Origin: an uncultured SAR86 cluster bacterium
GTDB lineage: Bacteria > Pseudomonadota > Gammaproteobacteria > Magnimaribacterales > Magnimaribacteraceae
Assembly (NCBI GenBank): GCA_902606175.1
Contig: CACLEZ010000002.1
Coordinates: 1-64,000 of the forward strand
DNA length: 64,000 nucleotides
Direction of reading: 5' to 3'
Numbering within the stretch: position 1 is the first letter of the stretch; the number at the start of each line of letters is the position of its first letter. Of the stretch, positions 12,264 through 60,648 are shown one piece after another. A program made the position numbers and the translations under genes. Below the pieces are notes generated by a model, which saw nothing but the letters and a program-made list of their open reading frames with translations, was not told the DNA's origin and did no database searches.

Positions 12264-14525
12264 CTAAAACTTATAATTAAATTTAGCTCCGTAATTTCTA
12301 CCAGCTAGAGGCACTTCATTCTTAACAAAAGATGAGTGATTTCTTGCAACCTCATCCTGCAAATTGCTACCAAAGATAGAGACTTTTAATTCAGCTGAGC
12401 CAGGTAAATCATAGGTTTTTGTTAATCTGGCATTTAGCAATTGATAGGATTCAGTAACAGTCTCTCCCTCTCCTATTTCGTCTTGCTCATCAACATCTTT
12501 CAAGCTCATTTTGAAAACCCAATCGTTTTCAACATAAGTCAAAGAATAGATATTTCTTGCGGGATTTATTCTAGGTACATTATGTCCATCAGAAAATTCT
12601 GCAGTGACGTCATCTCTTCCAAAAGAGAATGTTAAATCACCGGATCCTAAGCTCACAGTTGTTCCTATCTCAAATTCATAACCTTTGAATTCTGCATCTT
12701 CTTGAACGTAATTAGCGTGAATCAAATTAGCATGTGCTGCATGATCATCATGATCATCTCCGTGATCATCATCTCCGTGATCGTCGTGATCATCATCACC
12801 ATGATCATCATCTCCGTGATCGTCATGATCATCGAGCTCGTCTTGCAGTGTTATGTAATTATCTAGATCATTTATGTAGTAACTCGCTGATGCGTAAAAA
12901 TTTCCATTATCAAAGTTTAATGTTATGTCAAAATTATCTGATGTTTCGCTTTGAAGATTTGGGTTACCAGTTTCAAGTCTTCCAGTTGCCATATGTGGAC
13001 CATTCATGAAAAGCTCAATTACTGAAGGCAATCTTTCAACGCTAGCAAAACCTACGCTTATATCCAGACTATCACTTATATCTCTGCCGAGAGTGAGAGC
13101 GAAACTATTAGTGTCATCATCTACTTTATAGTAGTCGATATCTCCATGATCTTCATCAGTAACACTGCCAGTCCTCTCTATTTGATCAAGTCTAAAACCT
13201 GCATCAAGATAAAATAGGTCGAAGTCTGTACTAACGAAATAACCAATAGTGAACTCTTCACTATTAGCAGGATTCATAAAAGCTTCTTCACCAACAATTG
13301 ATGAATCTTCATCAACGAAATTTAATGCTACTTTTTGAGTAAATGAGTCTGTAGATAGATCAAAGATAGCGCCGTACTCGGTTGCATCATTTGTAAAGAC
13401 AGTTGGTGCATGTTCTTCATGCTCTTCTTCTTCATGTTCATCATGACCTTCTTCTTCTGCATGAGCTTCTGTTAAAGAGTACTCTGTATCTCTCCAGTTA
13501 TAGCTTATAGAATTAATTAAGCCTCCATTGGTATTGTATAAGCCGGCTAAGTTATAGCTCGTTTGGTCGGTAGTAGAGAAAATTCTCTCCCCTTCGTGCT
13601 CATCTCCGTGTTCATCGTCATCATGATCATCGTCTCCGTGCTCGTCATCATGATCATCGCCGTGCTCGTCTCCGTGCTCGTCTCCGTGCTCATCTCCGTG
13701 AAAAGGTATTCCATATAAGCTTTCTAAATTTTCATAACTCATTCCGAAATATCCCCATTCTCCTGTTCTCGAAACACCGAATTGCTTTGCTTCAGAAGCA
13801 AAATCAGAGTTTTCAACATAAGAAAGGGCTTCTTCTTCATGCTCATCGTGATCATCATCACCATGATCTTCTTCTTCATGAACTACAGCCCCGTCAGGTA
13901 TATCAAAATTACCTAATTCGGTATTTTTATAGCCAAGACTAAAATTAAGCCATCCCCCTAGGAGATTTTTGTAATTGAACTCTTGAATATCACCATCATT
14001 TGCCGATTGAGTTTCCAATCCTGCATTGACTTCTTGACCATCAAAATCTTCCCTAGCAATGGTATTGTTTACAACATTAATGATTCCACCAATGGTTCCA
14101 TTAGCATAAAGCAAAGAAGATGGTCCTTTAATGATTTCAATTTGTTCGATGTCATGTAAATCAACATCATTTAGATGATCAACACCAAGTCCTGAGACAT
14201 CTCTATTAACCATTCCATTTTTTAGAATTTTCACTCGAGGTCCGGACATACCCCTGATGATAGGCTGGCCAACTGCAGCACCATAATCTGCAATTGAGAC
14301 ACCTAAATAACTGTCGACGGCTTCACCCAGTGAAGTTGTTGCATCATCCTTTATTTCGTCTCCATCAATAACATAGAGAGGGTTTAGTATCCTGCTTGTA
14401 TTCAGAATTGAAGATGTAACCACAACCTCATCCACTTCTTCTGTAGCAGTAGGTGTAGGTTCATCAGCATTTATTTGCGTAACAATTAAGCTCATCGCCA
14501 TGAGCATGTAAAAGGAAACTTTCAT
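12264..14525 (-). CDS. TonB-dependent receptor with His/Asp-rich loops (ZnuD/copper-receptor-like)
   Basis: Outer-membrane active-transport receptor, 753 aa. It has a signal peptide (residues 1-20), a TonB-box-like EVDEVVVTSS, a plug domain (about 40-160; RGMSGPRVKILKNGM, IEIIKGPSSLLYANGTIGG) and a beta-barrel ending in GRNYGAKFNYKF. Unusual are the long low-complexity His/Asp/Glu/Gly segments near residues 210-230, 275-313, 365-385 and 563-600, probably extracellular loops that capture divalent metal. Neisseria ZnuD has similar His/Asp-rich loops and binds zinc. Here the gene ends a cytochrome oxidase/SCO1 cluster, so copper is an alternative. The ATG is preceded by AGGAGAAAAC. Confidence 0.9.
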   Translation of the reverse strand: MKVSFYMLMAMSLIVTQINADEPTPTATEEVDEVVVTSSILNTSRILNPLYVIDGDEIKDDATTSLGEAVDSYLGVSIADYGAAVGQPIIRGMSGPRVKILKNGMVNRDVSGLGVDHLNDVDLHDIEQIEIIKGPSSLLYANGTIGGIINVVNNTIAREDFDGQEVNAGLETQSANDGDIQEFNYKNLLGGWLNFSLGYKNTELGNFDIPDGAVVHEEEDHGDDDHDEHEEEALSYVENSDFASEAKQFGVSRTGEWGYFGMSYENLESLYGIPFHGDEHGDEHGDEHGDDHDDEHGDDDHDDDEHGDEHEGERIFSTTDQTSYNLAGLYNTNGGLINSISYNWRDTEYSLTEAHAEEEGHDEHEEEEHEEHAPTVFTNDATEYGAIFDLSTDSFTQKVALNFVDEDSSIVGEEAFMNPANSEEFTIGYFVSTDFDLFYLDAGFRLDQIERTGSVTDEDHGDIDYYKVDDDTNSFALTLGRDISDSLDISVGFASVERLPSVIELFMNGPHMATGRLETGNPNLQSETSDNFDITLNFDNGNFYASASYYINDLDNYITLQDELDDHDDHGDDDHGDDDHDDHGDDDHGDDHDDHAAHANLIHANYVQEDAEFKGYEFEIGTTVSLGSGDLTFSFGRDDVTAEFSDGHNVPRINPARNIYSLTYVENDWVFKMSLKDVDEQDEIGEGETVTESYQLLNARLTKTYDLPGSAELKVSIFGSNLQDEVARNHSSFVKNEVPLAGRNYGAKFNYKF
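12737..12836 (-). repeat. In-frame His/Asp-coding tandem repeat, distal barrel loop
   Basis: Imperfect short repeats built from GATCATCATGATCATC / TCTCCGTGATC units encode a run of His, Asp and Gly (residues about 563-596). The array is coding sequence of the TonB receptor; unit number is likely to vary by slippage. Confidence 0.8.
13589..13700 (-). repeat. In-frame HGDE/HGDD tandem repeat, proximal barrel loop
   Basis: Tandem 12-bp-like units (CTCGTCTCCGTG and variants) encode repeated His-Gly-Asp-Glu and His-Gly-Asp-Asp tetrapeptides in the TonB receptor (residues about 275-313). Near-identical adjacent units suggest recent expansion. Confidence 0.8.
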
Positions 14526-53697: not shown

Positions 53698-55044
53698 ATG
53701 AATATAGATTTTATAATTTTAGCTGCCGGTAAAGGCACAAGGATGGGAGGAGATTCCCCTAAAGTGCTTGCGAGTTTAGCAGGTAAACCCTTGGTACAAC
53801 ACCTTATCAATACGGTCGATTCATTTCAGAGTTCTAAAACTTCAATTGTGGTTGGTTATAAAGCCAACGAGGTTGAAACAGATCTCGTTTCTCAAAAAAA
53901 GCTTCGTTTTGTAAAACAAAAAAATCAGCTAGGAACAGCCCATGCAGTTAAGCAAGCGCTGCCTAATATCAGAAAGAATTCTGTAGCTGTAATCCTTTAC
54001 GGTGATGTTCCTTTGGTAGGAAAGAATACATTACAAAGACTTATAAAATCAGCATCAAAAGGAAAACTTTCGCTATTGACCTTCATAAAAGATGACCCCA
54101 CAGGTTATGGCAGAATTATCCGTGGTTCTAGGAAAAATGTTCAAAAAATCACAGAACACAAAGATGCATCATCAGCGGAAAAAGAAATTAGAGAAGTTAA
54201 TTCTGGCATCTTAGCGATCAAAGCAAGCCTGCTTCAACAATTGATTCCTAAAATCAAAAACAACAATGCAGCCAAAGAATATTACCTGACTGATCTGGTT
54301 GAAATTGCCAATAACCATTCAGTAGATGTTGTGGCCACTCTGTGCGACCCTTATGAAGTTGGTGGCGCTAATGACAAAAAGGAGTTGCATGAGCTTGAAA
54401 GAGCTTATCAGAAGAAATTAGCTGAAGATTTGCTTAAAAGCGGGGTGACTATTGCCGACACTTCAAGGATAGACATCAGGGGAGATATCAAGATAGGACA
54501 AAACTCTTTTGTAGATATCAATAATGTTTTTGAGGGCAACAATGTCTTGGGAAAGAATGTTCACATAGGACCTAATTGCTACATTTCTAACTGCAGTATC
54601 AAAGACAACACTATTGTTTATGCAAATACTGTATTGGAAGACAGTGTAATTGGAAAAAACTGCAAGATTGGGCCTTTTGCAAGAATAAGAGGAGGTAGCG
54701 AGCTAACAGAAGGAGCCGAACTTGGTAATTTTGTTGAGTCTAATAGAAGTAATATTGGCAAAAACTCTAAGGCCAAACACCTTACTTATTTAGGTGATGC
54801 AAGACTAGGCGCTAAAGTAAATGTAGGTGCTGGGACTATAACCTGTAACTACGATGGAAAAAATAAACATAAAACCATAATTGCAGATGGGACATTTATA
54901 GGCTCTAATAGCTCACTTGTTGCGCCCTTGGTTCTTGGAGAAAACTCTTACACTGGAGCCGGATCAGTTATAACTAAGGACGTTCCAAAGGGTAAACTTG
55001 CTGTTGCAAGAGGCAAACAAGTTAATCTGAATAAGAAGAAATAA
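53698..55044 (+). CDS. glmU: Bifunctional UDP-GlcNAc pyrophosphorylase / GlcN-1-P acetyltransferase
   Basis: Makes UDP-GlcNAc for peptidoglycan and LPS. The protein is 448 aa: N-terminal uridyltransferase (ILAAGKGTRMGGDSPKVL, GTAHAVKQAL) and a C-terminal left-handed beta-helix acetyltransferase (hexapeptide repeats; AKHLTYLGDARLGAKVNVGAG). It lies between the atp operon and glmS, 3 bp before glmS. Confidence 0.96.
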   Translation: MNIDFIILAAGKGTRMGGDSPKVLASLAGKPLVQHLINTVDSFQSSKTSIVVGYKANEVETDLVSQKKLRFVKQKNQLGTAHAVKQALPNIRKNSVAVILYGDVPLVGKNTLQRLIKSASKGKLSLLTFIKDDPTGYGRIIRGSRKNVQKITEHKDASSAEKEIREVNSGILAIKASLLQQLIPKIKNNNAAKEYYLTDLVEIANNHSVDVVATLCDPYEVGGANDKKELHELERAYQKKLAEDLLKSGVTIADTSRIDIRGDIKIGQNSFVDINNVFEGNNVLGKNVHIGPNCYISNCSIKDNTIVYANTVLEDSVIGKNCKIGPFARIRGGSELTEGAELGNFVESNRSNIGKNSKAKHLTYLGDARLGAKVNVGAGTITCNYDGKNKHKTIIADGTFIGSNSSLVAPLVLGENSYTGAGSVITKDVPKGKLAVARGKQVNLNKKK

Positions 55045-55047
55045 ATT

Positions 55048-56883
55048 ATGTGTGGAATAATCGGAGTAGCTTCTAGCAAACCCTCAGTAGATAAACTACT
55101 GATAGGGCTTTTGCGTCAGGAATATAGAGGATATGACTCAGCTGGCCTTGCTATTTTTGATGAAACAGAACAAATAAAGGTATTTAAAAGCACTGGTAAG
55201 GTGGCAGAGCTCCAAAACTCCATTGATCAAAATCCTGTGAATGGTAATACGGGTATTGCCCACACCAGATGGGCAACCCATGGCCTGCCAACAGAGACAA
55301 ATGCTCACCCGCACCATTCAAATAATAATATTTTTGTTATTCATAACGGCATTATTGAAAATCATCAAGAAATTAGAACTACACTTAAAGCTTTAGGTTA
55401 TGTTTTTGAGTCAGAAACAGACACAGAAGTTATTGCTCATCTGATTCATGCAAAAATGAGCGAGAATAAAGTGACTTTAATCGATGCCTTGAAGGCGGCA
55501 GTGAAGGATCTCAGAGGAGCTTATGCAATAGGTGCAGTTTGTGAGAACGAACCTGGAATTTTGGCTTCAGCCAGAAAAGGGAGTCCTTTGGTTATCGGTA
55601 TGGGGCACGGTGAAAATTTTATAGCTTCCGATCAACTTGCTTTAGCGGACTTTGCAGAGAATTTTGTATTTCTTGAAGATGGCGATCTTGCTGAAATCAC
55701 TTCTAAAGGAATTCGCTACTGGGATCTGGATGATACTGAAGTTGAAAGACCTGTTGTAGTTGCCAAGTCTTTAGGAGAGACGGTTGATAAAGGTGAATAC
55801 AGGCATTTCATGCTAAAAGAAATTAATGAGCAGCCATCAAAAATTAAAGGGCTGTTAGAAGGACAACTGACTGATTCGGGTGTTCAGGAAGAAATCTTCG
55901 GTCCAAGTGCTCCAGATATTTTCAAAAAAGTAGAGGCTGTTCAGATTGTGGCTTGTGGAACTAGCTTCCATGCTGGAACCGTAGCTAAATATTGGCTAGA
56001 AGGACTCGCTGGCTTGCCATGCAGCGTAGAAGTGGCAAGTGAATTTAGATATAGAAATAAAGTTGTGGCGCCAAATACTTTGTTTATAACGATTTCTCAG
56101 TCTGGTGAAACAGCAGACACACTAGCATGTTTAAGTGCTGCCAAAGATTCAGGCTACTTAGCCCGCCTTGGTATATGCAATGTTCCTTCAAGCTCTTTAG
56201 CGAGAGAATCTGATTTAGTATTTTTAACGAAAGCAGGTCCTGAAATAGGTGTTGCTTCAACAAAAGCTTTTACTACTCAGCTCGTTGGTTTATTGATGTT
56301 AACTTTAATTCTCGGAAGGCACCATGGTCTATCCGCAGCTGCTGAAAATACCATAAATAATTCACTTAGAGCACTACCTGATTCTTTAGATTCGGTGATG
56401 TTACTTGAAAATCAAATTATTGAAATGGCAGAGGATTTTGATCAAAAGGAACATGCACTCTTTTTAGGTAGAGGCATTCATTATCCAGTAGCTATGGAAG
56501 GCGCATTAAAACTTAAAGAAATTTCCTACATACACGCAGAGGCATATCCAGCCGGAGAACTGAAACATGGACCATTGGCGCTTGTCGATTCAGAAATGCC
56601 TGTTGTTGCGGTTGCTCCTAATGATGATCTGCTAGCAAAACTTCAATCAAACCTAGAAGAAGTAAGAGCGCGAGGAGGAAAGCTATATGTATTTGGACAC
56701 TCTGCAGCTCATCAGGAAGATGAATCAATAACTAAGTTCATTGAACTGCCTGAAGTCCCTGAGCTGATTGCTCCTCTAATTTACTCCATCCCATTACAGC
56801 TACTTGCCTATCATGTTGCCATCCTTAAAGGCACCGACATTGATCAGCCACGAAACCTCGCAAAGTCTGTGACTGTGGAGTAG
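55048..56883 (+). CDS. glmS: Glutamine--fructose-6-phosphate aminotransferase
   Basis: First hexosamine-pathway enzyme, 611 aa. N-terminal glutaminase with Cys2 (MCGIIGVASS) and THGLPTETNAHPH; two SIS isomerase domains (ISQSGETADTLA, ACGTSFHAG); C-terminal DQPRNLAKSVTVE. The DNA for these last residues and about 15 bp beyond the stop is repeated downstream and separates small cassette genes (see repeats). The Tn7 target site also lies at this end of glmS. Confidence 0.97.
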   Translation: MCGIIGVASSKPSVDKLLIGLLRQEYRGYDSAGLAIFDETEQIKVFKSTGKVAELQNSIDQNPVNGNTGIAHTRWATHGLPTETNAHPHHSNNNIFVIHNGIIENHQEIRTTLKALGYVFESETDTEVIAHLIHAKMSENKVTLIDALKAAVKDLRGAYAIGAVCENEPGILASARKGSPLVIGMGHGENFIASDQLALADFAENFVFLEDGDLAEITSKGIRYWDLDDTEVERPVVVAKSLGETVDKGEYRHFMLKEINEQPSKIKGLLEGQLTDSGVQEEIFGPSAPDIFKKVEAVQIVACGTSFHAGTVAKYWLEGLAGLPCSVEVASEFRYRNKVVAPNTLFITISQSGETADTLACLSAAKDSGYLARLGICNVPSSSLARESDLVFLTKAGPEIGVASTKAFTTQLVGLLMLTLILGRHHGLSAAAENTINNSLRALPDSLDSVMLLENQIIEMAEDFDQKEHALFLGRGIHYPVAMEGALKLKEISYIHAEAYPAGELKHGPLALVDSEMPVVAVAPNDDLLAKLQSNLEEVRARGGKLYVFGHSAAHQEDESITKFIELPEVPELIAPLIYSIPLQLLAYHVAILKGTDIDQPRNLAKSVTVE

Positions 56884-56898
56884 AACAAAACAGTGAAT
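56866..56898 (+). repeat. glmS 3'-end repeat R0 (original copy)
   Basis: Codons TCT GTG ACT GTG GAG TAG (Ser-Val-Thr-Val-Glu-stop) of glmS followed by AACAAAACAGTGAAT. The GTG of the next gene lies in the tail of the repeat. It matches R1 at 25/33 and R2 at 25/33 positions by hand alignment without gaps. Confidence 0.85.
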
Positions 56899-57258
56899 AA
56901 TGTCACAGAGGGAGGGTGTTTTTGTGGTTCAGTTCGCTACAGCTTTGAATCCGATAATTACCCCTCTTCGAATTGTCACTGCTCTATGTGCAGACGTACT
57001 TCAGGGGCTCCTTTTCTTTCTTGGATGGCTATTCCATTAACCGTCTTTGAATACAGCAAAGGTAATCCCAAAAAACTAATTTCCTCTAATCAAGGTACCA
57101 GGTACTTTTGTCAAGATTGTGGAACTCCTTTAACCTGTCTTCTTGACGAGTATCCTAAATATATTTATGTCACAATTTGTAGCTTAGACAATCCTCAAGA
57201 CTTTGAACCAAGTGGCGATATGTATGTTGAAGACATGCTTAACTGGATAAAAACATAA
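56893..57258 (+). CDS. GFA-family (CENP-V/GFA) zinc-binding protein
   Basis: A 121-aa protein of the Mss4-like GFA fold, in which cysteines bind zinc: GGCFCGSVRYSF, NCHCSMCRRTSGAPF and RYFCQDCGTPL. Relatives are loosely named glutathione-dependent formaldehyde-activating enzymes, but the true activity of most is unknown. It starts at GTG 56893, nine bases after the glmS stop and inside repeat R0; there is no room for a separate promoter, so it is probably read from the glmS transcript. It is the first cassette gene of the array. Confidence 0.85.
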   Translation: MNNVTEGGCFCGSVRYSFESDNYPSSNCHCSMCRRTSGAPFLSWMAIPLTVFEYSKGNPKKLISSNQGTRYFCQDCGTPLTCLLDEYPKYIYVTICSLDNPQDFEPSGDMYVEDMLNWIKT

Positions 57259-57286
57259 TGAAAGTTTATTCACTGTTTAAATACAT

Positions 57287-57319
57287 TCCGTTACAGTGGA
57301 GTAATTCACAACAGTAAAT
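57287..57319 (+). repeat. glmS 3'-end repeat R1
   Basis: TCC GTT ACA GTG GAG TAA encodes Ser-Val-Thr-Val-Glu-stop with wobble differences from glmS; the tail TTCACAACAGTAAAT aligns to R0 and R2. It is 421 bp from R0. No longer glmS homology is seen upstream of it. Confidence 0.8.
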
Positions 57320-57334
57320 TAACAGGAGATAATT

Positions 57335-57454
57335 ATGGAAATAAATTTTTACATTTGGTTAATTCTGACGATTGCGGTGACAGCATATTCTTGGATTTTG
57401 ATCGCAAAATGGGCAAAGAAAAAAGATACGAAACAACAATCCCTCGAAAACTAA
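57335..57454 (+). CDS. Cassette gene: 39-aa single-helix membrane protein
   Basis: Encodes MEINFYIWLILTIAVTAYS followed by WILIAKWAKKKDTKQQSLEN. One hydrophobic helix (residues 5-25) is followed by a basic then polar tail, the topology of a small N-out membrane protein. AGGAG lies six bases before the ATG. It is the only gene between repeats R1 and R2 (186 bp apart). No family recognised. Confidence 0.6.
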   Translation: MEINFYIWLILTIAVTAYSWILIAKWAKKKDTKQQSLEN

Positions 57455-57472
57455 TTGACTGTTGTAAAACAC

Positions 57473-57505
57473 TCAGAGACCGTGGAGTAATTCAGAACAT
57501 TGAAT
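57473..57505 (+). repeat. glmS 3'-end repeat R2
   Basis: TCA GAG ACC GTG GAG TAA (Ser-Glu-Thr-Val-Glu-stop) with tail TTCAGAACATTGAAT, 26/33 identical to R1 and 25/33 to R0. The ATG of the next cassette gene (57504) begins at its end. Confidence 0.8.
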
Positions 57506-57683
57506 GAAAAAATTAACCGTTAAAAGGTTTTTGCTGTACCTTAATTTATTTTTTTTGTTTCTCTTAATTGGATACGGTATTAATGATCGCCTATCCGGCA
57601 AATCATTAGGCGGTGATTATTGGGGAACATTAATAATACTCATAGCAATTTTGCCCAGTACCTTTCATATTCAAAATAAATAA
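57504..57683 (+). CDS. Cassette gene: 59-aa two-helix membrane protein
   Basis: Starts MKKLTVKRFLLYLNLFFLFL and has helix 1 (residues 9-25), a polar loop NDRLSGKSLGGDYWG and helix 2 (41-54), ending HIQNK. It begins 13 bases after the R2 stop with no clear Shine-Dalgarno, so translation may depend on coupling. Sole gene between R2 and R3. No family recognised. Confidence 0.6.
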   Translation: MKKLTVKRFLLYLNLFFLFLLIGYGINDRLSGKSLGGDYWGTLIILIAILPSTFHIQNK

Positions 57684-57706
57684 ATCAAATCACTTTTTAA
57701 GAATAG

Positions 57707-57739
57707 TCAGTTACGGTGCAGTTGATTAGAAAGGTAAAT
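57707..57739 (+). repeat. glmS 3'-end repeat R3 (degenerate)
   Basis: TCA GTT ACG GTG CAG TTG, i.e. the Glu codon and the stop have mutated, with tail ATTAGAAAGGTAAAT; 23/33 identical to R1 without gaps. Loss of the stop suggests an older copy. Confidence 0.65.
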
Positions 57740-57758
57740 CGAGTACAGAGTTAAATAG

Positions 57759-58163
57759 ATGAGCAAATATATAACTACCCTATGCTTAATTGTTGGAGGA
57801 ATAGTGCCAATAATAGTTGATATAAGTTCCAGCCACTTATTTAACCCTGACTGGGATGCACACGCGCGAGTTCATGAAGTATGGAGACTTTCAACTAACT
57901 TCCTTATCTTTGGTTTAGGCGTATATTTGTTATGGGTGAAAAAAATTGAGGTATTGCCTGGATTGCTTAGTCTTTGTATACACTTAGGCTTTGTTTTTTC
58001 TGCTGCAACTATGTCACTTTATGGAGGAGCTGCAACCGGTGAGGGCATACCTGAACCTTCCATAATTGGGATTCCACTAAATGTATTTATGTTTTCTACA
58101 ATGTTTTTAATTCAAAGTACTGTTTTAATATTTACCCTAAATCAATCGGTTTCTGTAAAGTAA
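57759..58163 (+). CDS. Cassette gene: four-helix membrane protein
   Basis: A 134-aa protein with four hydrophobic segments (about residues 5-22, 45-60, 66-90, 103-127). The loop after helix 1 contains SSHLFNPDWDAHARVHEVWRL in two parts, His/Asp-rich and conserved-looking. I do not recognise a named family. Its last codons (TCG GTT TCT GTA AAG TAA) themselves resemble the repeat core. It pairs with the DUF805 gene in the cassette between R3 and R4. Confidence 0.65.
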   Translation: MSKYITTLCLIVGGIVPIIVDISSSHLFNPDWDAHARVHEVWRLSTNFLIFGLGVYLLWVKKIEVLPGLLSLCIHLGFVFSAATMSLYGGAATGEGIPEPSIIGIPLNVFMFSTMFLIQSTVLIFTLNQSVSVK

Positions 58164-58193
58164 GCTTAGATTTTGATTTAAAAGGTGAGAACT

Positions 58194-58568
58194 ATGAATA
58201 TAAAAGATTCGTTTATTTCAGTTTTTTCAAATTGGTTAAATTTTAGCGGAAGAGCGTGCAGAAGTGAGTATTGGTACTTTTTTCTTTCTATATTCATCAT
58301 AACAATAGTTTTAACAATTTTAGAAATGTCCATAGGCATTTACAGTTATGAACTAGAGACAGGTCCTCTCACTTTATTACTTCAGCTGATAATTATTATT
58401 CCTTCGATATCAGTAGCGTCAAGAAGACTTCAAGATAGGGGCATTTCAGGGTGGTGGCAATTATCTTATATCACTATTATTGGCATATTCGTGATATTTG
58501 TTTTACTCATGCTCCCGGCAAAAGAAGCTGAAAATAAATGGGGAAGAAATCCACTGCTAGACCTTTAA
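58194..58568 (+). CDS. Cassette gene: DUF805 membrane protein
   Basis: A 124-aa membrane protein from ATG 58194 (an in-frame GTG at 58185 would add three residues). It has the DUF805 hallmarks NWLNFSGRACRSEYWYFFL at the N-terminus, VASRRLQDRGISGWWQL in the middle and the terminal NKWGRNPL. Function of the family is unknown; members are common in accessory regions. Confidence 0.85.
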   Translation: MNIKDSFISVFSNWLNFSGRACRSEYWYFFLSIFIITIVLTILEMSIGIYSYELETGPLTLLLQLIIIIPSISVASRRLQDRGISGWWQLSYITIIGIFVIFVLLMLPAKEAENKWGRNPLLDL

Positions 58569-58585
58569 ATCATGGTTTCAAAAAC

Positions 58586-58618
58586 TCAGTCACTGTGGAA
58601 TAGCTCAAATTGAGGAGA
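58586..58618 (+). repeat. glmS 3'-end repeat R4
   Basis: TCA GTC ACT GTG GAA TAG encodes Ser-Val-Thr-Val-Glu-stop, 15/18 identical to glmS with wobble changes only; the tail has diverged. The TTG start of the Nmad3-like gene lies six bases after this stop. Confidence 0.75.
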
Positions 58619-59407
58619 TTAATATTAAGCAGAAAGGGTTTTGACTCGAAGGCGGGTGGAAGCGCTTCACCTATATTTAATGACGGAAGTCTTTTTTCTA
58701 TACCTATCCCTCAACACCATCCCTCACCAAAAAAATACAAAGACCTAGATTTTAATGGCATTTCAGGTTCTAAATTATTGAAAGAAGTTTCAGCCAAGGT
58801 CAGAGAAACGGATTATTGCCATAATGACCCAATGTTAAACGAAAAAATTGGCATTTTTGGCCAAGCAAGTGCATCTCAGACTGAATTAAAGAATAATAAT
58901 GTAAGCTCTGGAGATTTGTTTTTATTTTTTGGATGGTTTAAAAATTTTTCAGCAAATGGCAGAGATTTGCATCATTTATTTGGTTGGTTGCAAATAGAGA
59001 AAATAATAGAAGGTTCAAAAGAGATTAAAAGATATCTTCGTGAGAATAATATTCAACACCCTCACGGATATGGAGATGTCTCAAGATTTTCAAATAACAC
59101 AATTTACATAGCCAAAAATAAATTAAAACTTAACAAAAGAAAAATTTTTGACAGAGGCTATGGTTTATTTAAATGGACTCATGATGATTTAATTTTGACT
59201 GAAAAAAGTAAAACAAGATCAAGATGGAAGTTACCCTCCAAATACTTTAAAGATTCAAAAGACCTTTTTTTAAATAGAATGAAGTGGGAGAATGAAGAAG
59301 AGTCCACAGTTTTTTATAGAGGATTTGGCCAAGAATTTATCATGGATATTGAAAAAAATCCAAATGTTAAGAAGTGGGCAATTAACTTAATAAAAAAACA
59401 TGGATGA
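58610..59407 (+). CDS. Nmad3-like nucleotide-modification-associated protein
   Basis: A 265-aa protein resembling the Nmad3 family (nucleotide modification associated domain 3), by the N-terminus LILSRKGFDSKAGGSASPIF, DGSLFSIPIP and the region GDLFLFFGWFKN ... HHLFGWLQIEKII. Family members were predicted by others to act with DNA base hypermodification; their chemistry is not established. The start is TTG 58610 inside repeat R4. It is AT-rich and A-rich relative to neighbours, which suggests transfer. It ends against the oxygenase gene. Confidence 0.7.
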   Translation: MRRLILSRKGFDSKAGGSASPIFNDGSLFSIPIPQHHPSPKKYKDLDFNGISGSKLLKEVSAKVRETDYCHNDPMLNEKIGIFGQASASQTELKNNNVSSGDLFLFFGWFKNFSANGRDLHHLFGWLQIEKIIEGSKEIKRYLRENNIQHPHGYGDVSRFSNNTIYIAKNKLKLNKRKIFDRGYGLFKWTHDDLILTEKSKTRSRWKLPSKYFKDSKDLFLNRMKWENEEESTVFYRGFGQEFIMDIEKNPNVKKWAINLIKKHG

Positions 59408-59439
59408 AATCGATCATATTTGAATCTGGGGGAGATAAG

Positions 59440-60648
59440 ATGAAAGAAAACATAGACAGTAAAGCCGCAAGCCTAGAGCTACCTGAAGTTGATTGGCTTG
59501 ATCGCGAGTCAAATCCGGAAAAGTTTTTTAAGGACTTATCTTACGCATTATCTGAATTTGGATTTATGGTCCTTACTAATGCGCCTGGATTGTCAGACGA
59601 ATTTCAAAAACGTGCGTTTCGAGAAGTACGTGGCTTTTTTGATTCACCAATGGAGTTAAAGAAAACTGCTCATATATCCAATACTCCTTATTTTCGGGGT
59701 TATAGCTTGCCTACTCCTGCTGATCGAGGCTTTGGTCAAGTCATAGAAGCTTTCCAGTATGGATTCGAACAAGAATCATTATGTGACTACGATGATAAAT
59801 CTCAACCAATTCACCGCAGACTCTTTCGTGGACCCAACACCTGGCCTGAAGATGAATCATTGCCGGGCTTTCGACCTTTAATAGATGAACTCAATGATTG
59901 TTATCACCACCTCACTCATGAACTAGGGGAGGCTATTGTCGAATCTTTGGGGGAGGACGTTGAATCATTTCGCGAATATTTTGATTTTGATAATCCAGAT
60001 CTGGCAGCAAGTCTTAATCATAATTATAGTATCAATGCCTTTGCCGAAAAGGATCAAGAAAATGTCAGAAAAGAGTACAAAAAATTCACAAGTGATAAAG
60101 TAGGTGCCCACATAGATGGCCCACCATTTATAGCTCTGCTGATAAACGATCGTCCTGGATTACAAGTTGTTGCAGGAGAAGGACAATGGATCGATGCCCC
60201 CGTTACCTGCCAAACATCACCCGGTGACTACCATGTGCCAGTTATTCCGGGGTCAGTCATCGTTAATACTGGTGGAACCTTAATGCACCTAAGCGAAGGG
60301 AGATATTCAGCCACACTGCATCGTGTAAATACAACCTTGATACCCGAAGGAGAAACTAGAGTTTCTATGCCTTATTTTTTATTGCCCAAAATGGAAGGAG
60401 ATCTGGTTCCTTTCGGTAAATCTGAAGCTGACTCTCTAGGCGCGGCAGGCTACGAGTCTGGAAGAGACAGAGGTGCAAATGCTAGCGTAAATCGTATGGG
60501 AACCTTTCCGCAAGTAACTAGGCGTTGGTGGGCTGATGAATATGCTGAGTTACGTCAAAAGCAAAATGATGAGGTTAAGGCTGAAACACAAGCTGCTTTC
60601 AAACTAGCAAAAGAGCGCGGTGAACGCTTCAAGAAACAATCAGACTAG
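59440..60648 (+). CDS. 2-oxoglutarate/Fe(II)-dependent oxygenase, isopenicillin-N-synthase-like
   Basis: A 402-aa non-heme iron oxygenase. The facial triad is seen as AHIDGPPF (His, Asp) and SATLHRVN (distal His), with Arg of RVSMPYF as the 2OG-anchoring residue. An N-terminal DIOX_N-like domain has LSEFGFMVLTN. ATG 59440 with GGGGGAGA upstream is preferred to 59404, which overlaps the previous gene. It overlaps the downstream hydrolase by 3 bp (TAGTG). Substrate unknown. Confidence 0.85.
   Translation: MKENIDSKAASLELPEVDWLDRESNPEKFFKDLSYALSEFGFMVLTNAPGLSDEFQKRAFREVRGFFDSPMELKKTAHISNTPYFRGYSLPTPADRGFGQVIEAFQYGFEQESLCDYDDKSQPIHRRLFRGPNTWPEDESLPGFRPLIDELNDCYHHLTHELGEAIVESLGEDVESFREYFDFDNPDLAASLNHNYSINAFAEKDQENVRKEYKKFTSDKVGAHIDGPPFIALLINDRPGLQVVAGEGQWIDAPVTCQTSPGDYHVPVIPGSVIVNTGGTLMHLSEGRYSATLHRVNTTLIPEGETRVSMPYFLLPKMEGDLVPFGKSEADSLGAAGYESGRDRGANASVNRMGTFPQVTRRWWADEYAELRQKQNDEVKAETQAAFKLAKERGERFKKQSD

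What the first reader, a model, noticed from the sequence alone, without database searches (positions are those of the whole stretch)
56866..58618. Tandem glmS 3'-end repeats delimiting promoterless small-gene cassettes
Seen: the last six codons of glmS (Ser-Val-Thr-Val-Glu-stop) plus about 15 bp recur at 57287, 57473, 57707 and 58586. Copies R1 and R4 still encode the same peptide and stop; R2 has one amino-acid change, R3 has lost the stop. Hand alignments give R0/R1 25/33, R1/R2 26/33, R3/R1 23/33 without gaps. Differences in the core fall largely on third codon positions. Between copies lie single small genes or a pair, with no recombinase. Known: the 3' end of glmS is the target of Tn7-family TnsD, and integrating elements can leave copies of the gene end. 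Inference: successive cassettes, each bringing a glmS end from a different lineage, were inserted by a system acting in trans, giving an integron-like stack in an otherwise compact genome. I know of no named system of this exact form.
Basis: partly seen in the sequence, partly recalled or inferred. Interest (0 to 1): 0.88.

Follow-up and report, generated by a model that had tools for sequence, protein, structure and literature searches.

The report
Serine-recombinase gene cassettes beside glmS
In ocean bacteria of the SAR86 group the end of the glmS gene is a docking site where small gene cassettes are stacked one after another, apparently by a serine recombinase whose own gene is cut in two by docking, so it works like an integron but with different machinery.

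Summary
The repeats are real (five copies as stated, plus a decayed sixth at 58146). They are attachment-site cores of a large serine recombinase (LSR) system.

In 100 SAR86-order genomes the core recurs 230 times downstream of glmS on its strand, never on the other. The two ends of a cassette are inverted repeats centred exactly on A|C of the core, and linkage of wobble bases to the flanking arms switches at that AC: a 2-bp exchange, as serine recombinases make.

Two circular viral contigs carry the symmetric site inside an LSR gene. Integrated elements with LSR and C-terminal piece at opposite ends lie at glmS in one SAR86 genome of 203 and in one of the Flavobacteriales order. C-terminal pieces alone lie at glmS in SAR116, Gammaproteobacteria and Flavobacteriales.

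Most SAR86 cassettes lack a recombinase, carry small genes in glmS direction, and recur between families at 97% median identity where glmS is 64% identical.

Ten literature searches found no description. Trans-mobilisation of LSR-less cassettes is inferred, not shown.

The parts
55048..56883 (+). glmS; its last codons are the attachment target
   Evidence: Pfam SIS and GATase; ends NLAKSVTVE-stop
56866..56882 (+). core 1 at glmS; exchange point between 56872 (A) and 56873 (C)
56873..57293 (+). cassette 1 (421 bp), GFA-family gene at 56893-57258; own ends 15/21 dyad
   Evidence: Pfam PF04828 E 4.8e-25; dyad
57287..57303 (+). core 2
57294..57479 (+). cassette 2 (186 bp), 39-aa membrane-like ORF at 57335-57454; dyad 16/21; 95.8-100 % identical in four other SAR86 genomes of three families, at array positions 0, 1 and 4
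57473..57489 (+). core 3 (one mismatch)
57480..57713 (+). cassette 3 (234 bp), 59-aa ORF at 57504-57683; weak dyad 11/21
57707..57723 (+). core 4, decayed (two mismatches, stop lost)
57714..58152 (+). cassette 4 (439 bp), 134-aa ORF at 57759-58163; relatives are array genes in G013, G017 and G009; dyad 8/21 (no better than random partners)
58153..58592 (+). cassette 5 (440 bp), DUF805 gene at 58194-58568; relatives 70-72 % identical lie in arrays of family f2; dyad 7/21 (no better than random partners)
58586..58602 (+). core 6
58593..59407 (+). last unit, Nmad3 gene (58610-59407); no right-hand core recognised; its relative in G058 lies between two cores
   Evidence: Pfam PF18754 E 7.4e-55
59440..60645 (+). 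2OG-oxygenase gene: right flank of the array here and in 14 other genomes; starts 54 bp after glmS in G048

Best explanation
The glmS 3' end is the attB site of a family of large serine recombinases (LSRs) carried by small mobile elements. A cassette or element exists as a circle whose attP is a symmetric site: arm (about 16-18 bp), NNN, TCNGTNA|CNGTNGARTA, arm. The LSR cuts at the central AC and joins circle to glmS, so glmS keeps its codons up to the A and receives ACN GTN GAR TAR, which restores Thr-Val-Glu-stop, from the incoming circle; the displaced right half moves to the far end of the insert. Repeated insertion at glmS or at later cores builds the array. In the complete elements the attP lies inside the LSR gene (shown in two circular contigs; consistent in one integrated element), so integration separates a C-terminal helix-turn-helix piece from the catalytic part and should switch the enzyme off. 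Most SAR86 cassettes, the window's included, contain neither part; I infer that they are moved in trans by LSRs arriving on elements with matching arms, and are read from glmS transcription. Shown by sequence: site anatomy, exchange point, cassette mobility between families, LSR elements at glmS. Inferred: enzymatic activity, trans-mobilisation, circle intermediates of small cassettes, expression.
For: Site: 230 forward cores, 0 reverse, 7 for the reversed pattern on both strands, in 838 kb downstream of glmS of 100 genomes; 83 of 100 have at least one. Dyad: own ends of 229 cassettes match 12.63 of 21 positions against 8.34 for random partners and 8.75 at chromosomal junctions; 95 of 229 reach 16 against 1.68 % of controls; centres shifted by 1-8 bp give 4.7-6.8. 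Exchange point: at cluster level right arms are linked to wobble positions 9, 12, 15 (0 of 1000 shuffles each) but not 3, 6 (194, 239 of 1000); left arms to 3, 6 (0 of 1000) but not 9, 12, 15 (73, 550, 206) (pair level). Single events: empty G072 against occupied G099, G009 against G017. Enzyme: of 205 exact cores in 202 viral loci only two stand out in symmetry (18 and 14 of 24; next 11), L163 and L191, both with terminal direct repeats and both with the site inside an LSR gene. G152 (SAR86): 6,047-bp element at glmS with a 551-aa LSR at one end and the helix-turn-helix piece at the other, dyad 18/21. G691: 4,834-bp element at glmS, LSR frame and helix-turn-helix frame both open through their cores in the same phase, dyad 17/21. 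LSR catalytic parts at the glmS end in 6 of 8 further loci. Mobility: 44 cassette pairs between SAR86 families, median 96.8 % identity against 63.5 % for glmS, cassette higher in 44 of 44. Cognate arms: the arms of the G152 element recur on LSR-less cassettes of G041, G118, G134 and G102.
Against: No enzyme activity was tested. The LSR-bearing element at glmS was found in only 1 of 203 SAR86 genomes, so mobilisation in trans rests on inference. In G152 the LSR and the helix-turn-helix piece are in different phases at the site and the frames are not open across it. 112 of 229 cassettes fall below 14/21 dyad matches, partly because decayed or false cores were counted (beta-repeat ORFs in G009, G013, G018); three of the five delimited window cassettes score 11, 8 and 7. 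Arms are very diverse (140 right-arm clusters in 330 junctions), which would need many recombinase specificities. L163 and L191 are called viral only by the collection.
Confidence: 0.86

Rival explanations
1. A true integron: tyrosine integrase IntI moving attC cassettes, with glmS as attI.
For: Single small genes in one direction, hybrid repeats, variable palindromic arms, hypervariable content.
Against: Of 19 genomes at least 90 % complete, 14 have exactly two tyrosine recombinases, all about 300 aa (taken as XerC/XerD by number and size, not by tree), one has 1, three have 3 and one has 4. Exchange is confined to positions 7-8, and neighbours 6 and 9 differ freely between partners, against the 6-8 bp identical overlap of tyrosine recombinases (recalled). 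The dyad centre is the exchange point, not the outer box of an attC.
Confidence: 0.03
2. Tn7-like transposition guided by a TnsD/TniQ protein that reads the glmS end.
For: The glmS end is the known target of TnsD (recalled); conserved positions ignore wobble bases.
Against: TniQ in 0 of 61 genomes (but its control rang nowhere, so inconclusive); arms differ between cassettes; exchange is inside the last codons, with no sign of a 5-bp target duplication.
Confidence: 0.02
3. The arrays are only graveyards: each cassette is the deleted remnant of a separately integrated LSR element, and LSR-less cassettes are not mobile.
For: C-terminal LSR pieces without the catalytic part: 18 of 18 matches in 12 genomes start at residue 557 or later of 733; decayed cores in the window.
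Against: Identical LSR-less cassettes with intact arms and cores recur at other array positions in other families (different position in 32 of 44 cross-family pairs; window cassette 2 in four other genomes).
Confidence: 0.1
4. Single-strand systems (HUH/IS200-like, or hairpin recognition of the arms).
For: Arms vary in sequence but stay complementary.
Against: Y1_Tnp in 0 of 61 genomes with a control that rang in 5 of 14; an LSR accounts for a pseudo-palindromic duplex site.
Confidence: 0.02

Closest known systems
Large serine recombinase (serine integrase) attP x attB systems, e.g. Listeria A118/LI integrase (PMC3783163, passages read)
   Same: Resolvase, Recombinase and zinc-ribbon domains; pseudo-palindromic attP with half-sites of about 25 bp; central dinucleotide
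   Different: attP inside the recombinase gene; extra C-terminal helix-turn-helix after the site; target glmS; stacked cassettes mostly without recombinase
Staphylococcal cassette chromosome (SCC, Ccr serine recombinases at the 3' end of rlmH; recalled)
   Same: Serine recombinase inserting at the 3' end of a conserved gene, tandem inserts separated by direct repeats, remnants without recombinase
   Different: SCC are large and carry ccr genes; here the target is glmS, units have a median of 663 bp, and each has its own arms
Integrons and their gene cassettes
   Same: One-directional small-gene cassettes stacked at a fixed site, hybrid sites, variable arms, very diverse content
   Different: No dedicated IntI, no attC geometry, exchange at the dyad centre over 2 bp, enzyme not encoded next to the array
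PLE phage satellite of Vibrio cholerae with LSR Int (PMC6002521, passages read)
   Same: Small island moved by an LSR; helper phage supplies the directionality factor
   Different: Target is a V. cholerae repeat, LSR gene intact, no cassette stacks
SSV-type partitioned integrases of archaea (recalled)
   Same: Integration splits the integrase gene at the attachment site
   Different: Those are tyrosine integrases at tRNA genes; this is a serine recombinase at a protein gene
Tn7 / attTn7 (recalled)
   Same: Reads the conserved glmS end
   Different: Transposition downstream of the gene by TnsABC+D, no site hybrids

Membership tests
Large serine recombinase integration system | Resolvase N-terminal, Recombinase and zinc-ribbon domains in one protein | tested here: met
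   L191 protein all three above cut-off; G152 protein Resolvase 6.1e-24, Recombinase 1e-11, zinc ribbon 2.8e-4 but below the cut-off; L163 read as two pieces: Resolvase and Recombinase
Large serine recombinase integration system | exchange confined to a central dinucleotide | tested here: met
   Linkage switches between core positions 6 and 9, i.e. AC at 7-8
Large serine recombinase integration system | pseudo-palindromic attP, half-site about 25 bp | tested here: met
   Dyad to offset about 26 centred on A|C; half-site size from passages of PMC3783163
Large serine recombinase integration system | catalysis of attP x attB joining by the enzyme | not testable with these tools
   Only sequence evidence: LSR genes at the glmS end
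Large serine recombinase integration system | directionality factor for excision | not tested
   A 78-aa DNA-binding-like ORF in the G691 element (L432:8447-8683) is a candidate by eye only
Integron | IntI tyrosine integrase | tested here: not met
   14 of 19 genomes at least 90 % complete hold exactly two tyrosine recombinases of about 300 aa
Integron | attC sites with exchange in the outer R' box | tested here: not met
   Exchange at the dyad centre; no attC model was run, Rfam scan of the array empty
Integron | array of mostly one-directional small-gene cassettes | tested here: met
   155 of 172 cassettes up to 1.5 kb with an ORF of 40 aa or more have the longest ORF on the glmS strand
Tn7-like transposon | TniQ/TnsD protein | tested here: inconclusive
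   0 of 61, control silent
SCC | ccr genes and rlmH target | tested here: not met
   Target is glmS; ccr itself was not searched
SSV-type partitioned integrase | tyrosine integrase split at tRNA | tested here: not met
   Split gene is a serine recombinase, target glmS

The most novel reading that the evidence does not exclude
A serine-recombinase counterpart of the integron: across marine Gammaproteobacteria, Alphaproteobacteria and Bacteroidota the glmS 3' end is a shared capture site, where single-gene cassettes without any recombinase are inserted, shuffled and traded between lineages by LSRs that arrive on small extrachromosomal (perhaps phage-satellite) elements and inactivate themselves by splitting their own gene when they dock.
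Probability: 0.6. Interest if true: 0.92.

Novelty: new variant of a known kind. Interest (0 to 1): 0.86.

Why it matters
SAR86 are abundant, streamlined, mostly uncultured ocean bacteria (recalled). How such compact genomes acquire accessory genes is an open question; here is a defined site, carried in occupied form by 83 of 100 genomes examined, with a mechanism that can be tested in the laboratory. It shows that integron-like gene capture can rest on serine rather than tyrosine recombinases, gives a second known example of an integrase gene partitioned by its own integration, and offers glmS-directed serine recombinases whose target is a conserved coding sequence. Cargo includes DNA methylases and restriction genes, so the site may also carry phage defence.

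Tried and rejected
Tyrosine integrase: complete or near-complete relatives mostly have only two. Small serine resolvases/LSRs by Pfam in 61 genomes: matches in 3 genomes, 2 over the cut-off, both away from glmS and with another C-terminus. HUH Y1 transposase: 0 of 61. TniQ: 0 of 61 with a silent control. Annotated phages and plasmids: L163 LSR fragment matched 4 phage records and 1 plasmid record only weakly; L191 LSR matched 160 phage records at below 60 % identity; the helix-turn-helix piece matched none. Viral contigs with the LSR of L163 or L191 as query returned only themselves. Rfam scan of 55000-60000: no match. Class-wide strict core search: 201 of 274 gammaproteobacterial genomes have it, 7 of 274 more than once, so arrays are not general; the pattern was exact and longer than the core and so undercounts. 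First IR scan included false cores in beta-repeat genes; a first glmS identity figure was misregistered and was replaced by aligned values.

Literature: ten searches of the open PMC library showed no description of this system in the listings; subscription papers and preprint servers are mostly not held. Passages were read in PMC10187409, PMC3783163 and PMC6002521; other papers were seen as listings only.
Full report
Observation. A sixth, decayed copy lies at 58146. In the own genome all 4 matches with up to one mismatch lie in this array.

Relatives. The C-terminal part of GlmS was found in 44 of 61 related genomes and 151 of 199 of the order. I read the DNA downstream in 40 of the 43 relatives of the first set, 60 more of the second and the window; one (G104) ends at glmS and was dropped, leaving 100. 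In 838 kb there are 230 forward cores with up to one mismatch, 0 on the other strand, and 7 for the reversed pattern on both strands; 83 of 100 genomes have at least one. A few of the 230 are false hits in beta-repeat genes of G009, G013 and G018. Several of the 17 genomes without a core had only short stretches to read. By family: 17 of 20, 48 of 51, 12 of 22 and 6 of 7. Fixed flanks with variable filling: the oxygenase gene at 59440 follows the array in 15 of 100 genomes including the window, starts 54 bp after glmS in G048, 2.6 kb after it in the window and 7.3 kb after it in G001.

Site anatomy. For each cassette the sequence after its left core and before its right core are inverted repeats of each other. 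Scored as a dyad about the A|C of the core (offsets 8-28), own ends match 12.63 of 21 positions on average against 8.34 for ends taken from other genomes and 8.75 for neighbouring cassettes at the chromosomal junction; moving the centre by 1-8 bp either way drops the score to 4.7-6.8; 95 of 229 reach 16 or more against 1.68 % of controls. 112 of 229 fall below 14. So the ring form of a cassette would have one symmetric site, arm-NNN-TCNGTNA|CNGTNGARTA-arm. Passages of PMC3783163 describe LSR attP sites as pseudo-palindromic with 25-bp half-sites around a central dinucleotide and a zinc-domain motif at positions 16-24, which is where the arms lie.

Exchange point. Junctions from different genera that share only the right arm agree at core wobble positions 9, 12 and 15 (0.53, 0.61, 0.82 against background 0.32, 0.33, 0.47) but not at 3 and 6; junctions that share only the left arm agree at 3 and 6 (0.78, 0.54 against 0.34, 0.25) but not at 9, 12, 15 (745 and 651 pairs, background a sample of 5000 of 32,897). 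A cluster-level shuffle test gives 0 of 1000 for each linked position and 73-550 of 1000 for the unlinked ones. Single events agree: empty G072 reads TCTGTCA|CGGTAGAGTAatttttgat; G099 of the same genus reads TCTGTCA|CTGTTGAATAg at glmS and, 1,407 bp on, TCCGTAA|CGGTAGAGTAatttttgat; G017 against G009 shows insertion of the 186-bp cassette. The exchange is therefore within positions 7-8. Serine recombinases exchange at 2 bp; tyrosine recombinases need 6-8 identical bases (recalled).

The enzyme. Five pattern scans of viral contigs gave 202 loci with 205 exact cores. Only two sites are strongly symmetric, in L163 (18 of 24) and L191 (14 of 24); the next best have 11. Both contigs have direct terminal repeats of 123 and 77 bp and so are probably circles. 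In both the site lies inside a large serine recombinase gene (domains), with about 120-130 codons after it. Those last codons encode a helix-turn-helix that is also found as a stand-alone piece beside glmS in SAR86: 7 of 61 genomes, 6 of them by coordinates in the glmS array, the seventh (G028) not placed. A genome-wide scan returned 20 loci, 2 of them false; of the 18, 15 have the glmS end on the same stretch: SAR116 and another alphaproteobacterium, SAR86, Porticoccaceae, Cellvibrionales, UBA1119, Flavobacteriales. The whole L191 protein against 15 of these genomes matched in 12, 18 places, none starting before residue 557 of 733 and 13 of 18 starting at 587 or later; the site is at about residue 597-604. 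The catalytic part is missing there.

Complete elements exist. G152 (SAR86) has a 6,047-bp insert at glmS with the helix-turn-helix piece (84 aa) at the glmS end, a Rep-like protein (PF23343, 1.6e-6) and a 551-aa LSR at the far end, dyad 18/21. It is the only such LSR at glmS in 203 SAR86 genomes; two others, in G041 and G044, lie elsewhere. Against a simple split, in G152 the two pieces are in different phases at the site and the frames are closed. Its arms recur on LSR-less cassettes of G041, G118, G134 and G102, all in its genus. In 395 genomes of the Flavobacteriales order 8 have relatives of the L191 catalytic part; in 6 it abuts the glmS end, running through the site in three examined (L419, L427, L428: open, same phase as L191), and in a seventh (G691) a complete 4,834-bp element lies at glmS with helix-turn-helix piece and LSR at opposite ends, both frames open through their cores in the same phase, dyad 17/21. 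The eighth (G501) showed no glmS end. Among 14 helix-turn-helix pieces with a core nearby, 13 frames are open to the core. In several of these genomes the contig ends soon after the LSR, so most elements could not be read in full.

Mobility and cargo. 229 core-to-core units (median 663 bp) fall into 178 families, 152 seen once. The same cassette recurs between families of SAR86 in 44 pairs, median 96.8 % identical (76.7-100) where the 3' part of glmS is 63.5 %, at different array positions in 32. Window cassette 2 is 100, 98.8, 97.0 and 95.8 % identical in G001, G017, G042 and G067. Of 172 cassettes up to 1.5 kb with an ORF of 40 aa or more, 155 have the longest ORF on the glmS strand. In 71 cassette proteins Pfam finds, among 33 families, MORN_2 (4), C-5 DNA methylases (2), HNH nucleases (2) and single restriction and modification domains; PADLOC hits are methyltransferases in the 25 shown.

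Mechanism, with status. Shown by sequence: target, site, 2-bp exchange, hybrid cores, transfer between lineages, LSR elements at this site. Inferred from known LSR biochemistry: the LSR of such elements joins attP to the glmS end; the incoming right half restores Thr-Val-Glu-stop, which explains why the right half obeys the genetic code; splitting the gene limits the enzyme to the circular state; LSR-less cassettes are moved in trans. Not known: directionality factor, role of the free helix-turn-helix piece, how circles travel. L163 carries a protein matching a phage clamp-loader family (phrog_225), a hint of a phage-satellite life, no more.

Relation to known systems. It works like an integron but does not meet two of its defining features. 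It uses the chemistry of LSR systems and is filed there as a new variant; SCC and SSV-type integrases share single features. I found no account of it in ten searches of an open-licence library, which does not cover subscription papers.

Noticed in passing
L312, L329, L347 (viral contigs), just after the glmS end: Different glmS 3' ends are followed by nearly the same sequence AATTTCGTAATATAAAATGTGA, perhaps another element that uses glmS.
   Followed up: no
L163:9473-9868: 131-aa protein matching the phage clamp-loader family phrog_225, E 3.3e-20, on a 10-kb circular element with an LSR, a small resolvase and a GIY-YIG protein.
   Followed up: partly
L113, L114 (G041, G044): Two other large serine recombinases (525 and 519 aa) away from glmS with a similar C-terminus ..LVEL.GIEP.T, suggesting a different, shared target.
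   Followed up: no
G009 and G013 glmS downstream, about 1-8 kb: Long ORF of VTVDYAVTGTATG-type repeats directly after the array; its repeats mimic the core.
   Followed up: no
L432:8447-8683 (minus strand): 78-aa ORF in the complete G691 element that looks, by eye, like an excisionase-type DNA-binding protein; candidate directionality factor.
   Followed up: no
window 12264-14525: Outer-membrane-receptor-like protein with long His/Asp-rich stretches.
   Followed up: no
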